Assembly (NCBI GenBank): GCA_023663235.1
Contig: JAMPHW010000001.1
Span: 138,837 to 188,094, forward strand
DNA length: 49,258 bases
Source of the DNA: Ruminococcus sp.
Lineage (GTDB): Bacteria; Bacillota_I; Bacilli_A; RF39; UBA660
Reading direction: 5' to 3'
Position 1 is the stretch's first letter; the number at the start of each line of letters is the position of its first letter. The position numbers and the translations under genes were made by a program. The notes under the pieces were generated by a model. The model worked only from the letters and a program-made list of their open reading frames with translations. It had not been told where the DNA came from and searched no databases. This document shows positions 2,614 through 8,755 of this stretch, piece after piece.

Positions 2614-2667
2614 CGTGTTTAAAATGTTTTTAAAATGTTCTATATTTAATTAGTAAAGGTGATGGAA

Positions 2668-3000
2668 ATGTTAAAAGTAGATATGGAATATGATAAAGGT
2701 ATTTTATATGTAAGATTAAAAGGAGTATTAGATCGTAAAGCTTGTTACAAAATTAATAACTATATTGTTCCTGTTGTTTTAAAACATAAGATAAAATATT
2801 TAGTGTTTAATTTATTTGAATTAAAAGATATTGATGAGTCAGGATTAGATTCATTATTAAATACTAAGTGTGCAATAAGAACTAATAAAGGTAAAATTTG
2901 TTTATGTGAAGTAAGTGATGATCTTAGAATAAAAATTAAACGTTTAAGAATGCATATTGCATCAAATGAATTAGCAGCGAATAGGTTAATAAATATCTAA
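2668..3000 (+). CDS. spoIIAA: Anti-sigma F factor antagonist SpoIIAA-like (STAS domain)
   Basis: A 110-residue STAS-domain protein. The motif DIDESGLDSLL places the phosphorylatable serine at residue 58, the same number as in B. subtilis SpoIIAA. In the known pathway dephosphorylated SpoIIAA binds the anti-sigma kinase SpoIIAB and frees SigF in the forespore. An upstream GTG (2659) and ATG (2662) are in frame, but AAAGGTG (2655-2661) is best spaced for ATG 2668. The stop overlaps the sigF start by one base (TAATG), so the two are translationally coupled. The expected middle gene spoIIAB is absent here. A general RsbV-like role is possible, but the Spo0A box and sigF partner favour sporulation. 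Confidence 0.78.
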   Translation: MLKVDMEYDKGILYVRLKGVLDRKACYKINNYIVPVVLKHKIKYLVFNLFELKDIDESGLDSLLNTKCAIRTNKGKICLCEVSDDLRIKIKRLRMHIASNELAANRLINI

Positions 3001-3641
3001 TGACAACTAATGATTTAATAGATAGTTATATGGGATTAATTAAAACGATAGCAAACAAATTTTACAATTATGAAAAAGAAGATTTAATTCAGGTTGGTGT
3101 AATTGGACTTCTTAATGCATATAAAAATTTTAAAAATACAGGAGAAACACAGTTTAGCACTTATGCTTACACTTATATTTTTGGTGAAATGTATAATCTT
3201 GTTAATAGTGCAAAATCAATAAAAGTTAGCAGAGATTTACTAAAAATATATCGAATGGTAGAAAAAACACGTTATAGTTTAGCTCAAAAATTAGGATATA
3301 TTCCGAGTAATGAAGAAGTAGCTTTATTTTTAGAATATGATATAGATAAAGTAAATATGGCAATAAATAGTGCAGAGGCAATGATTAGAATAGATGATGA
3401 AGCAAGTGAGCTTAACTTACATGAAGTTATACCTGACAAACACAAGAATAATATTGATTTAAAACTTGATTTAGATGATAGTTTTAAAATGTTAAATGAT
3501 GATGAAAGGGAAATAATAAGAGCTAGATATTATGAAGATTTAACGCAATCTGAAGTAGCTAAAAAACTTAATATGACACAAGTTATGGTATCGCGTTATG
3601 AGAAAAAAAGTTTGGAGAAAATGCGAATGGCTATGATGTAA
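3000..3641 (+). CDS. sigF: Sporulation sigma factor, SigF/SigG type
   Basis: A 213-residue sigma-70 family protein of the SigB/F/G branch. Region 2 has DLIQVGVIGLLNAYKNF and FSTYAYTYIFGEM; region 3 has KVSRDLLKIYRMVEKTRYSLAQ; region 4.2 has LTQSEVAKKLNMTQVMVSRYEKK. By alignment from memory it lacks about 35 N-terminal residues compared with B. subtilis SigF (about 255). Directly after spoIIAA and below a Spo0A box, SigF is the natural reading, though SigG cannot be excluded by sequence alone. It would direct early forespore transcription. Its direct overlap with the antagonist gene, without the anti-sigma gene, is unusual. A terminator follows immediately. Confidence 0.8.
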   Translation: MTTNDLIDSYMGLIKTIANKFYNYEKEDLIQVGVIGLLNAYKNFKNTGETQFSTYAYTYIFGEMYNLVNSAKSIKVSRDLLKIYRMVEKTRYSLAQKLGYIPSNEEVALFLEYDIDKVNMAINSAEAMIRIDDEASELNLHEVIPDKHKNNIDLKLDLDDSFKMLNDDEREIIRARYYEDLTQSEVAKKLNMTQVMVSRYEKKSLEKMRMAMM

Positions 3642-3698: not shown

Positions 3699-3774
3699 GC
3701 TGAAATAGCTCAGTTGGTAGAGCAACGCACTCGTAATGCGTAGGTCGGAGGTTCGATTCCTCTTTTCAGCACCA
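3699..3774 (+). tRNA. tRNA-Thr (anticodon CGT)
   Basis: Full cloverleaf. Acceptor GCTGAAA pairs with TTTCAGC, the D arm holds AGCTCAGTTGGTAGAGC, the anticodon arm is ACGCA-CTCGTAA-TGCGT, and the T arm contains GGTTCGATTCC. CCA is encoded. Confidence 0.95.
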
Positions 3775-3811
3775 GATTGATAGGAAACTCGAATCTTTCG
3801 GGTAACAATAG

Positions 3812-3841
3812 AAAACGCACTTGATAAAAGTACGTTTTTAT
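3812..3841 (+). terminator. Terminator after tRNA-Thr
   Basis: AAAACG and ACTT (3812-3822, one mismatch) pair with AAGT and CGTTTT (3828-3838); the stem runs into a T-rich stretch. Confidence 0.55.
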
Positions 3842-3865
3842 GTTATTATAAATATATCAAGGGAA

Positions 3866-3914
3866 CTTGCATAAAATAAAAAAGGAAATACTTAACTTTG
3901 GCAAGTTGAGTACT
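3866..3914 (-). terminator. Minus-strand terminator of the small-peptide mRNA
   Basis: On the minus strand TACTCAACTT pairs with AAGTTAAGTA (plus-strand 3903-3912 and 3889-3898) around GCCA, followed by TTTCCTTTTTTATTTT. The same segment is complementary to the 5' leader of this transcript (4075-4100). Confidence 0.75.
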
Positions 3915-3930
3915 TACCTAAATTTGGTTA

Positions 3931-3959
3931 AGCACTTAATCTATGCTAGATTGAGTGCT
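3931..3959. other. Long hairpin at the 3' end of the small-peptide gene
   Basis: AGCACTTAATCTA (3931-3943) and TAGATTGAGTGCT (3947-3959) form a 13-bp near-perfect stem with a 3-nt loop, next to the stop codon of the peptide gene. On the plus strand it is followed by a T-rich run (ATTTCTTTAT), so it could end an antisense RNA. No firm promoter for such an RNA was found. Confidence 0.45.
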
Positions 3960-4047
3960 ATTTCTTTATAGATAGAATCATTAAAGAGACTATTAATAAA
4001 ATGATGATTAATATTAGAAATGAGATTAGCAAATCCTTTTTCTTCAT
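3958..4047 (-). CDS. 29-residue hydrophobic peptide, probable type I toxin
   Basis: The peptide begins MKKKD, continues as one uninterrupted hydrophobic helix (LLISFLILIIILLIVSLMIL) and ends SIKK. Charged ends with a single membrane span are typical of type I toxin peptides. AAAGGAGG stands nine bases before the ATG. The transcript is well defined: promoter at 4112-4140, terminator at 3866-3914, about 220 nt in all. The leader (ACTTAACTGTTGAGT on the minus strand) is complementary to the 3' end (ACTCAAC and AGTTAAGT), the kind of 5'-3' closing seen in type I toxin mRNAs that hides the ribosome site. No family name can be assigned. The alternative is a small regulatory membrane peptide. Confidence 0.6.
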   Translation of the reverse strand: MKKKDLLISFLILIIILLIVSLMILSIKK

Positions 4048-4111
4048 AATACCAAGCCTCCTTTCATAAGAAAGTTGGCAAGCACTCAACAGTTAAGTTT
4101 TCCCTATATGC

Positions 4112-4140
4112 ATTATAACAAATTAATATCCATAAAACAA
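4112..4140 (-). promoter_or_regulatory. Promoter of the small-peptide mRNA
   Basis: On the minus strand TTGTTT (4140-4135), a 17-nt spacer and TATAAT (4117-4112); start expected near 4105. Confidence 0.7.
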
Positions 4141-5483: not shown

Positions 5484-5513
5484 ATATTGCGCTTATTAAA
5501 AGGAGTTGGTTTT

Positions 5514-7064
5514 GTGATAGTACCTAAGATGTATATTAATGCAATACGCCATACAATAAAAGAAATAACAAATGCTAATACTAGTTATTTAAATACGTTA
5601 GAGAAATATTATAATGCAATTACTAGAAGTTATGTTGGAATAGATGGGTTAGCTCAAAAATCATTAGTGATAGAAAGTTTTAATAAAAGATATAATACTA
5701 AATTTACAAGATTAACATCTAAAAGAGAAATAGAAAAGTGGTATTTGGAAAAATGCAAGATTGCAAAGGATGATAATGCTAAATTAGAGACAATTCTTGA
5801 TGCTTTAACAAGAGAAGGTTTTGTTAAACCAACTTATAATTTTCCAAGAGTTTTAATGTCATTAATGATTAGCGATTCTCTTTATCAATCTTTTATATTA
5901 ACAGGTATTAAAATTAACGCATCAAGTGTTAAAAAACCTACATATTTAATGGATAAGGTTGAAAGCGATTTATGGGAACTTGAAAAAGCTATGGCAGCAT
6001 TAATTGATGATAATTATGTAATAAAAAAAGAAAGCTGTAAAAGATTTTTAGAACTTTATAATGCTTATTTATATGTTTTTACTAAATTTATTACAGAAAC
6101 TTTTGGCAATAGTTATGCTGTTTCTTTGGATAAAAGAATAGATATGAATTTAGAAAATATGAGGGATTATATAAATAAGGGTAGAGAGATAGTTAGCGGT
6201 AAAGATAAACCCTCAGAATCAGCTGTTAAACAAGAAGCTATTTCTATGCCTAAAGAGGATTTACTTCAAAAATATGTTTCGAACGGTAAAGTAGTAAAAG
6301 TGTGTGATATTGAAGAATTTACGAAAATACTTGATAGTGCTGATATTCCTGATATTCGAAAAAAAGAATATTTAGCGCAAATGATTAATTTAACTAATAG
6401 ACTTGCAAATGCTGAAAGACAAAAGAAAATTGAAACATTAAAACAAGAAGTATTTACTAAAGAAGAAATAATTACTTATAATGAGGCTAGAGTAAGTAAT
6501 AATGGTGAGGCAACACAAGTTATTAAAGATGTTAATGCAATTCTTGAGCTATTATTAGAAGCTGAATTAGAAGATAGAGAAGAATTAATTATGGAAGCTA
6601 GTTCACTTCTAGAGTATTTACAAAGTATTTTGCATCCTCAAGAAAGCGATGTTTCTAAACCAGTAGTATATTTTAAGAATAATAATGAAATTCCTTATAT
6701 AGAAGAAAATCTAGTTAATGTTTATGGTAATGATGCTAATATTATTGCTCAGGATTTAATTAAGATTATAGATGGTAAAACAGTTAAATGTAGGGAACTT
6801 CAAGGAGATTTACCAATTAGAGTATTTTTTAAGGGTTATAAATTTAAAATTTTTTATAGTATGATAAATGGTATTCCTCTAATTATTTATGGTGGTAGTG
6901 GTAAAAACGTTTGCCAGAAAGTGATAAATTTAGTTAATAGTAGAGAGTTTTTAGAATATTTAAAAAATATGCAAAAAGTATTTAAATCTGGTACAGCTAT
7001 AAATGATAGTACTTATACTGATATAATTATGAAAAGATTAAAGTATGATAGAGGACTTATATAG
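5514..7064 (+). CDS. Unknown protein, first of two tandem paralogues
   Basis: 516 residues from GTG 5514, which AGGAG (5501-5505) selects; the open frame upstream of it starts at the expected transcript end. The protein is mainly helical and soluble. Shared with the next gene are DALTREGFVKPTYNFPRV near residue 100, a 45-residue unit starting KYVSNGKVVKVCDIEEF (about 245), NNGEATQVIKDVNAILELLLE (about 330), and a C-terminal domain with PIRVFFKGYKFKIFYSMING followed by a glycine-rich turn. That last stretch looks like a small beta-sheet and faintly recalls RelE-fold proteins, but I would not claim it. No known family. The two genes form an operon with 14 bases between them. Confidence 0.7.
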   Translation: MIVPKMYINAIRHTIKEITNANTSYLNTLEKYYNAITRSYVGIDGLAQKSLVIESFNKRYNTKFTRLTSKREIEKWYLEKCKIAKDDNAKLETILDALTREGFVKPTYNFPRVLMSLMISDSLYQSFILTGIKINASSVKKPTYLMDKVESDLWELEKAMAALIDDNYVIKKESCKRFLELYNAYLYVFTKFITETFGNSYAVSLDKRIDMNLENMRDYINKGREIVSGKDKPSESAVKQEAISMPKEDLLQKYVSNGKVVKVCDIEEFTKILDSADIPDIRKKEYLAQMINLTNRLANAERQKKIETLKQEVFTKEEIITYNEARVSNNGEATQVIKDVNAILELLLEAELEDREELIMEASSLLEYLQSILHPQESDVSKPVVYFKNNNEIPYIEENLVNVYGNDANIIAQDLIKIIDGKTVKCRELQGDLPIRVFFKGYKFKIFYSMINGIPLIIYGGSGKNVCQKVINLVNSREFLEYLKNMQKVFKSGTAINDSTYTDIIMKRLKYDRGLI

Positions 7065-7078
7065 AAAAGGGTGGTTTT

Positions 7079-8755
7079 ATGAGTAATAGAAAGTTAGTAG
7101 AAGATATTAAAAATTGTTTAAAATATACAATTAGAAGTGGTAAGAAAAGTATTAGAAAAAATAAAAAAGTTTCAGATTTACCAATGGATGAATATGTGAA
7201 TCAAATGGTGAATGATAAGCAAAAACTTATGGTTGGTATTTTGTCTATGTTAGGTAAAATAGATATGTATGAGTTAAGAGAAAATACAGAAAATGTAGTT
7301 AATGGTTTAATGGATAAAGTGCAAATAGATGTTGATAAAGTTCAAACAGTATATGATGCATTAACTGTTGATGGTTTTAATAAGGTAACTTATGGACTTC
7401 CAAGAGTCATAATTACTTGTATAAATAATTCATCATTTTTCTCATCTTTAGTTCTATCAGGTATTAAAATAAATGGGGAAACTTTAGAATTTGATGAACG
7501 ATTAATGGATGATAATGAACGAGAATTAAAGCATTTAGAGAGACAAATGGCAACATTCATTGCAAGCGATTTAACAATTCATATAGAATATTTAGATATA
7601 TTTATGGCTCTTTATAAGAAATATATTATGACATATATTGATAATGCTAAAAAAGATAAACTTTATGATTATAAAGGTGCTGATGAACTTTTATTTATAG
7701 TATTTTTAGGTATGCGTAATTATATTAGATTTGGTTATCAAAACGATGTTAAAGAGACTAACAGTGTAAAGAATAGTTTAGATGATTATGTTAAAGAAGG
7801 AGAAATAATAAATATTTGTCCTTTAGAAAATTTTGAAGAATTATTAAAAGAAACTAATTTAGCAGAAGAAACTAAAAATAGATTAATAACTAAAATGACT
7901 TTAATAATAAGCTCAGAAGAAGAATTAACTCATTATATTAAAGATGGTAGAGTTGAGAGAATATGTGATTTAGAACATTTTAAGTTTTTACTTGATAATA
8001 GTTTAATAGTCGAGTATATGAAAAAAGAGTATTTAAAACAAATGATAAATTTAACTCATAGAAAAGAACAAGAAGAGAAAGATTTAAAACTAGAAGAATT
8101 AAAAAATGAATTGCTTGATAATCAAGAATCTGAACTTTATGCTATGGCTAAAAGAAGTGGCAATATAGAGGCTACACAGTTAATTAAGGAAATTGATGCA
8201 ATACTAGAATTATTATTAGAGGTAACAGAGGAAGAAGAGCAAAATAGTTTAAGAGATGAACTTAGTTTATATTTTAGTTATTTGAATGTAATGTTTAACT
8301 CTCAAGAAGAAGCGTCTACTATTTCTTCAAAAGTACTATATTATAAAAATGAAAGTTTAGTACCTGTTATTTTACCTAAAATAGAGGGAACCTCTAAAGG
8401 TGAATATAAGCAAATATATAACGATTTAAATAAAATATCTAGTGGTAATGTTGGTAATGACCCTTTATTAAAAGGAACAGGTTTATCAATACCAGTTTAT
8501 ATTAAAGGTAAGAAATTTAAAATATTTTATATGATTATAAATGGCTTTATATTAATTATTGATGGAGGCTTAGAAAGTGGAGCTACAAAAGATGTTCTAA
8601 GTGTTGTTAAGACTAATGAGTTTAAAAACTATTTAGGGGAGTTACAGAATAATTTAAATAATGGGATTGTATATAATGAGGCTCCTTATGAAGAAATGAT
8701 TTTAAATGAATTAAAAAAATCGGAAAGAGTACGTCAAATTGTTACTTTAAGTTGA
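7079..8755 (+). CDS. Unknown protein, second of two tandem paralogues
   Basis: 558 residues, starting at ATG 7079 behind AAAGGGTGG. It aligns with the previous protein along its length: YDALTVDGFNKVTYGLPRV, SGIKIN, RSGNIEATQLIKEIDAILEL and the C-terminal SIPVYIKGKKFKIFYMIING. It differs in having two copies of the roughly 45-residue unit, DYVKEGEIINICPLENF (about 240) and HYIKDGRVERICDLEHF (about 285), where the first paralogue has one. Soluble and helical, with no transmembrane segment. The stop codon lies inside the rpsO promoter. No function can be given. Confidence 0.7.
   Translation: MSNRKLVEDIKNCLKYTIRSGKKSIRKNKKVSDLPMDEYVNQMVNDKQKLMVGILSMLGKIDMYELRENTENVVNGLMDKVQIDVDKVQTVYDALTVDGFNKVTYGLPRVIITCINNSSFFSSLVLSGIKINGETLEFDERLMDDNERELKHLERQMATFIASDLTIHIEYLDIFMALYKKYIMTYIDNAKKDKLYDYKGADELLFIVFLGMRNYIRFGYQNDVKETNSVKNSLDDYVKEGEIINICPLENFEELLKETNLAEETKNRLITKMTLIISSEEELTHYIKDGRVERICDLEHFKFLLDNSLIVEYMKKEYLKQMINLTHRKEQEEKDLKLEELKNELLDNQESELYAMAKRSGNIEATQLIKEIDAILELLLEVTEEEEQNSLRDELSLYFSYLNVMFNSQEEASTISSKVLYYKNESLVPVILPKIEGTSKGEYKQIYNDLNKISSGNVGNDPLLKGTGLSIPVYIKGKKFKIFYMIINGFILIIDGGLESGATKDVLSVVKTNEFKNYLGELQNNLNNGIVYNEAPYEEMILNELKKSERVRQIVTLS

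What the first reader, a model, noticed from the sequence alone, without database searches (positions are those of the whole stretch)
3866..4140. Undescribed-looking type I toxin locus next to sigF and tRNA-Thr
A 29-residue single-span peptide has a perfect ribosome site, a strong promoter, and a strong terminator, giving a 220-nt mRNA. Its 5' leader is complementary to its 3' end in two blocks (ACTTAACT/AGTTAAGT and GTTGAGT/ACTCAAC), as in Hok-type mRNAs that fold shut. A second long hairpin (3931-3959) could end an antisense RNA.
Basis: partly seen in the sequence, partly recalled or inferred. Interest (0 to 1): 0.68.

Follow-up and report, generated by a model that had tools for sequence, protein, structure and literature searches.

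The report
New bacterial toxin–antisense RNA gene family
A tiny membrane-peptide gene and an antisense RNA that overlaps the end of its message form what is very probably a self-poisoning module of an undescribed family, found in dozens of genera of uncultured gut bacteria and often sitting just after a tRNA gene.

Summary
On the minus strand a ~230-nt mRNA encodes a 29-residue single-span peptide, and its first ~27 nt pair with its last ~35 nt. Its 5' motif occurs in 119 of 291 genomes of the window's GTDB family (reversed-pattern control: 0) and in 1 of 341 genomes of other families of the class. About 124 intact copies carry at least five groups of single-span peptides under purifying selection; the end-to-end mRNA pairing and the antisense hairpin show compensatory changes. 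Copies often lie ~80 nt after a tRNA, form tandem arrays, and come and go at the sigF/tRNA-Thr site. No Pfam, NCBIfam, PHROG, PADLOC or Rfam family matches; no phage, plasmid or IMG/VR hit. Best reading: a new family of 3'-overlapping type I toxin-antitoxin modules, like BsrG/SR4 and TxpA/RatA in layout and AapA/Hok in mRNA closure. Transcription and toxicity are untested.

The parts
4112..4140 (-). toxin mRNA promoter, TTGTTT-17-TATAAT with extended -10; predicted start near 4105
   Evidence: sequence; relatives show a TATAAT-like box followed by (A)GGRA at the same place
4077..4103 (-). 5' leader arm of the end-to-end mRNA pairing
   Evidence: fold z -5.9; cognate vs non-cognate duplex test; covariation
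4057..4074 (-). local hairpin CTTTC/GAAAG overlapping the ribosome site AAAGGAGG (4064-4057)
   Evidence: sequence; mean unpaired probability of the site 0.25 against 0.46 with shuffled upstream sequence over 115 loci
3958..4047 (-). 29-aa single-span peptide, predicted toxin (subgroup A1)
   Evidence: ORF; dN/dS 0.11 in A1
3931..3959 (+). terminator hairpin of the antisense RNA; on the mRNA strand the first 3'-UTR hairpin
   Evidence: 6 of 9 pairs with two-sided changes in subgroup A2
3884..3918 (-). 3'-UTR arm of the end-to-end mRNA pairing, including the terminator hairpin 3911-3890
3871..3883 (-). U-tract of the mRNA terminator; on the plus strand the conserved A-rich tract of the antisense RNA
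   Evidence: conserved in all listed copies
3856..3968 (+). predicted antisense RNA antitoxin, about 110 nt
   Evidence: promoter and terminator; conserved 5' motif
3858..3869 (+). antisense 5' hairpin CAAG-GGAA-CTTG with a GNRA loop
   Evidence: closing pair C-G or G-C with 1 mismatch in 176 copies; loops GAAA, GGAA, GCAA, GAGA
3821..3849 (+). antisense promoter TTGATA-17-TATTAT with extended -10
   Evidence: conserved in relatives
3812..3838 (.). hairpin with T-runs on both strands, overlapping the antisense -35; probable tRNA terminator on + and back-up mRNA terminator on -
   Evidence: similar hairpins with changed stems in other copies
3699..3774 (+). tRNA-Thr(CGU), the neighbouring gene; site of insertion

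Best explanation
A type I toxin-antitoxin module of a family not described in the libraries and papers searched. The minus strand makes a short, closed mRNA for a 29-residue membrane peptide. Its 5' end pairs with its 3' end, and a local hairpin hides the ribosome site, so the full-length mRNA should be poorly translated. The plus strand makes a ~110-nt antisense RNA from its own promoter; it ends at the toxin stop codon and covers the whole 3' UTR. By analogy with TxpA/RatA and BsrG/SR4 it would pair with the mRNA's 3' end and lead to RNase III cleavage and/or keep the ribosome site shut. If antisense synthesis stops, the peptide is made and disturbs the membrane. Shown by sequence and comparison: both transcription units' signals, the coding frame, the end-to-end pairing, the antisense hairpin, the linkage of toxin and antisense, spread and turnover of copies. 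Inferred: transcription, pairing in the cell, RNase III, any 3' trimming step, toxicity.
For: Promoter, terminator and hairpin on the plus strand. Conserved antisense 5' motif in 119/291 genomes and 83/150 genera of the family, 0 for the reversed pattern. 124 intact copies with a 17-45-aa hydrophobic frame and ribosome site at the same distance from the motif. Purifying selection, dN/dS 0.11-0.49 in five subgroups. Leader pairs with own 3' UTR at mean -30.9 kcal/mol against -16.8 with other subgroups, 121 loci. Compensatory changes: 10 of 19 leader/3'UTR pairs in A2 with 98% of cells paired (slid controls 35% or less), 13 of 24 in D. Ribosome site locally hidden. Motif-blind toxin searches in 26 genomes of the genus recover toxins that nearly all carry the antisense hairpin. 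Decayed copies with broken toxin frames but the antisense kept (L013, L106).
Against: No transcript or growth data exist here. In the folds, removing the 3' arm hardly frees the ribosome site on average (unpaired 0.21 to 0.23; window locus 0.10 to 0.24, start codon 0.24 to 0.61), so a Hok/AapA-type activation by 3' trimming is not established. The peptides match no known toxin family.
Confidence: 0.87

Rival explanations
1. The peptide is a non-toxic small membrane protein (for example a regulator of a membrane complex), and the antisense RNA merely tunes its amount.
For: Toxicity is untested; small single-span regulatory proteins are common in bacteria (general knowledge).
Against: Many near-identical and divergent copies per genome, tandem arrays, patchy presence, turnover at one site, decayed toxin frames, and several unrelated-looking hydrophobic peptides on one antitoxin scaffold fit selfish toxin-antitoxin modules better than a housekeeping regulator.
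Confidence: 0.08
2. The repeated unit is a small mobile DNA element whose hairpins serve DNA mobility, with the short frame incidental.
For: Repeated, palindromic, next to tRNA genes, variably present.
Against: Frame under purifying selection in five subgroups; GNRA loops and stem covariation on one strand only point to an RNA; promoters and ribosome sites at fixed places; no shared ends among copies that are not next to tRNAs.
Confidence: 0.03
3. It is a diverged member of a known family (Fst/Ldr, TxpA/BsrG, Hok).
For: Same 3'-overlap layout as the Gram-positive families; a sub-threshold BsrG covariance hit at the window locus (13.7 bits, cut-off 55, E 2.4).
Against: The BsrG hit does not recur in 15 related loci; no family HMM reaches its cut-off.
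Confidence: 0.04

Closest known systems
BsrG/SR4 and TxpA/RatA (Bacillus subtilis)
   Same: Small membrane-peptide mRNA with an antisense RNA from the opposite strand that overlaps its 3' end (75-120 nt there, about 90 nt here); ribosome site in a local stem (PMC4147584).
   Different: Peptides unrelated in sequence and shorter (22-31 aa against 38-59); no Rfam match above threshold; not on prophage or skin-like elements in the collections searched; a shared antisense 5' hairpin with GNRA loop serves several toxin groups.
AapA/IsoA (Helicobacter pylori) and hok/sok
   Same: Toxin mRNA closed by long-distance pairing of its two ends plus local structures that hide the ribosome site (PMC6733600); multi-copy with sequence-diverse loci.
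   Different: There the antisense covers the 5' part or the leader frame, here the 3' UTR; no sequence relation; no evidence yet of a 3'-trimming step.
Clostridioides difficile CD0977.1-RCd11 and relatives
   Same: Short hydrophobic toxins with AGGAGG ribosome sites and convergent antisense RNAs (PMC7699646).
   Different: Toxins there are 35-50 aa with a charged tail and lie on prophages; these lie on chromosomes, often next to tRNA genes.
Fst/Ldr
   Same: Single-span peptide toxin, convergent RNAs with shared terminator region (PMC7472228, title and abstract only).
   Different: No Fst signature in the peptides and no family hit.

Membership tests
type I toxin-antitoxin (general kind) | short hydrophobic single-span peptide with its own ribosome site | tested here: met
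type I toxin-antitoxin (general kind) | antisense RNA gene complementary to the toxin mRNA, with own promoter and terminator | tested here: met
   signals in sequence and conserved in relatives; transcription itself not seen
type I toxin-antitoxin (general kind) | peptide toxic when expressed alone, relieved by the RNA | not testable with these tools
   needs an experiment
Gram-positive 3'-overlap group (TxpA/RatA, BsrG/SR4) | antisense overlaps only the 3' part of the mRNA | tested here: met
   antisense 3856-3968 against mRNA 4105-3876; CDS ends at 3958
Gram-positive 3'-overlap group (TxpA/RatA, BsrG/SR4) | sequence homology of toxin or RNA to the named families | tested here: not met
   Rfam, Pfam, NCBIfam
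Hok/Sok | Hok peptide homology | tested here: not met
   only a 12.4-bit hit of one A2 peptide to HokA, cut-off 89
Hok/Sok or AapA | mRNA inactive through pairing of 5' and 3' ends | tested here: met
   fold and covariation; inactivity itself not measured
Hok/Sok or AapA | 3' trimming opens the ribosome site | tested here: inconclusive
   little change on average in folds
Hok/Sok | overlapping leader frame (mok) | not tested
   not searched for systematically

The most novel reading that the evidence does not exclude
One antitoxin-RNA scaffold (GNRA-capped 5' hairpin, A-rich tract, promoter with built-in terminator) has been combined with at least five groups of toxin peptides and matching mRNA ends, and spreads as a small cassette into sites just downstream of tRNA and tmRNA genes across a large family of uncultured gut Bacilli, where one module can replace another at the same site.
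Probability: 0.45. Interest if true: 0.72.

Novelty: new variant of a known kind. Interest (0 to 1): 0.62.

Why it matters
It adds a large, chromosomal type I toxin-antitoxin family in a group of uncultured gut bacteria for which the papers searched report none. The many copies make the folding rules of a closed toxin mRNA readable from covariation, in a 3'-overlap system where end-to-end closure and antisense pairing use the same sequence. The come-and-go at tRNA sites makes the role of such modules in genome turnover directly testable by comparing genomes. None of these peptides matched an annotated family, so such modules are probably invisible in present annotation.

Tried and rejected
Known RNA families: only sub-threshold hits; the BsrG hit does not recur in 15 relatives. 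Known protein families: none. Phage, plasmid and IMG/VR collections: no match. A simple repeat-element explanation was rejected because of coding selection and strand-specific RNA covariation. Two hits outside the group were checked: Fictibacillus (L071) is a chance match without a module; 'Clostridium sp.' MAG (L083) and a genome of another GTDB family (L186) carry real modules, either transferred or from misassigned contigs. The idea that 3' trimming alone frees the ribosome site got only weak support. In subgroups A1 and C the pairs hardly vary, so they say little for or against the fold.

Full report
What is there. On the minus strand the window holds a complete small gene: extended -10 promoter (4140-4112), leader, ribosome site AAAGGAGG (4064-4057), a 29-codon frame (4047-3958) and a T-tract (3883-3878). 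The predicted mRNA is about 230 nt. Its fold is far better than that of shuffled sequences (-67.4 against -41.9 kcal/mol, z -5.9) because 4103-4077 pairs with 3918-3884. On the plus strand there is a promoter at 3821-3849 and a terminator at 3931-3959, which predict an antisense RNA of about 110 nt that starts just beyond the mRNA's 3' end and stops at the toxin's stop codon.

Relatives. A DNA search of the same genome found five further places. L002, L003, L005 and L006 have the same layout with different peptides, L006 cut off by a contig end; L004 is a tRNA with the promoter block but no module. What they share most is the 5' end of the antisense RNA: hairpin, ATAAAATAAAAAAGG. The pattern AAGGRAACTT-ATANAATAAAAAAG occurs in 119 of 291 genomes and 83 of 150 genera of the window's GTDB family, with none for the reversed pattern. 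In a draw across the class 23 of 54 genomes of this family match, against 1 of 341 from other families (counts taken from the listing). Named carriers are uncultured Bacilli, Tenericutes and similar metagenome-assembled genomes from rabbit, goat, sheep, roe deer and chicken samples, among them Candidatus Ventrenecus.

The toxin. Of 197 motif copies fetched, 124 have an intact hydrophobic frame with a ribosome site in the expected place. The peptides fall into groups: A1 (the window: MKKKDLLISFL...), A2 (MxKKDFLI...), B (MKTKTFIIKVL...), C (...LIKIVPTV), D (MTKREx...) and a few odd ones. Within five groups dN/dS is 0.11, 0.21, 0.43, 0.49 and 0.21. In group C the mRNA sequence complementary to the leader, AATAGTACC, lies inside the last codons, so part of the conserved peptide end may be an RNA constraint.

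The closed mRNA. Leaders pair with their own 3' UTRs at -30.9 kcal/mol on average, against -16.8 with those of other groups and -24.2 with other members of the same group (121 loci). On alignments, A2 keeps 98% of leader/3'UTR cells paired, with two-sided changes at 10 of 19 pairs (sliding the partner: 35% paired at most); D has 13 of 24; B 3 of 11; A1 and C are too alike to test. The leader is also complementary to the 5' arm of the next hairpin (own -9.7 against -5.3 kcal/mol), so a competing fold during transcription is possible, as in AapA3 and Hok mRNAs (PMC6733600). The ribosome site is hidden by a local stem in most loci (unpaired 0.25 against 0.46 in controls). Taking away the 3' arm does not open it on average, so local structure looks like the main lock.

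The antisense RNA. The closing pair of its 5' hairpin is C-G or G-C with one mismatch in 176 copies. With the loop left free in the search, roughly 130 of about 150 listed copies have GNRA loops of four kinds (GAAA, GGAA, GCAA, GAGA; my count of the listing). Toxins found without using the motif carry the same hairpin in changed forms such as ATGAAA/TTTCAT and TATGTCAA/TTGACATA. GNRA is a GNRA loop only on the plus strand, so this is direct evidence for a plus-strand RNA. The copies are not independent, so no probability is attached.

Location and turnover. Forty-one of 197 copies lie downstream of a tRNA, always on the tRNA's strand in antisense orientation and mostly 75-93 nt from it; chance would give about 1-2% (estimate from some 40 tRNAs per 1.2 Mb). 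A tmRNA neighbour occurs too (L048). Close relatives of the window's module sit next to tRNA-Arg (L042) and tRNA-Leu (L141, L161). At the window's own site, sigF then tRNA-Thr, a relative (L200) has a group-B module 81 nt after the tRNA, another (L198) has what looks like a decayed A2 module, and most of the others have none. Twenty-seven neighbouring pairs of copies lie under 1 kb apart, 25 of them in the same orientation. No phage, plasmid or IMG/VR record matched.

How it probably works. Full-length mRNA is folded shut. The antisense RNA pairs with the 3' UTR and, as shown for RatA and SR4 (PMC4147584), would lead to RNase III cleavage or deeper hiding of the ribosome site. Loss of the module or of its promoter would leave stable mRNA that is eventually translated. 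The pairing, selection and linkage are shown by comparison; every step in the cell is inferred.

Place among known systems. It works like the Gram-positive 3'-overlap systems, with end-to-end closure as in AapA and Hok. It is a member of none of them by sequence. Papers searched gave no description of it, but only open-licence papers are held.

Noticed in passing
L274 1175 and 1500 (-), L275 503 (+), L280 1500 (-): A sister set with 22-aa peptides (MNKKDFLIFSLIVIIILLIIFN and alike). Leader and 3' UTR are again complementary (GGTGCTTGCC with GGCAAGCACT), but the antisense hairpin and A-rich tract are absent: a second antitoxin type for A2-like toxins. Several genomes (G291, G302, G305) have many such hits.
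   Followed up: partly
L004 1400-1560 (own genome, contig C11 near 276800): tRNA-Leu followed by the same trailer hairpin, terminator-like hairpin and promoter as the window's module, but with no module behind it.
   Followed up: partly
window 3787-3838 and upstream regions of L002, L026, L041, L042: A repeated tRNA-trailer block (GATTGATAGGAAACTCGAA..TTCGAGTAA..ATAGAAAACG) precedes many modules; in some copies only the GCACCA end of a tRNA remains before it, as if a recombination site had been used.
   Followed up: partly
L230 1500-1740 (+): A group-B toxin frame whose 3' UTR is interrupted by a sequence starting TGAACTGAACCCCAAAAGTTGGACAG, which looks like an insertion-sequence end; the antisense would be lost.
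   Followed up: no
window 2659-3641: A STAS-domain protein (SpoIIAA-like) gene is followed directly by the sigma-factor gene (overlap at 3000) with no anti-sigma gene (SpoIIAB) between them.
   Followed up: no
window 5487-7064 and 7079-8755: Two adjacent genes of 525 and 558 codons whose ends look alike and that match no Pfam family.
   Followed up: no
L186 1499 (+), L083 7885 (-): Intact-looking modules in a genome of another GTDB family (G474) and in a MAG labelled Clostridium sp.: transfer or misassigned contigs.
   Followed up: partly
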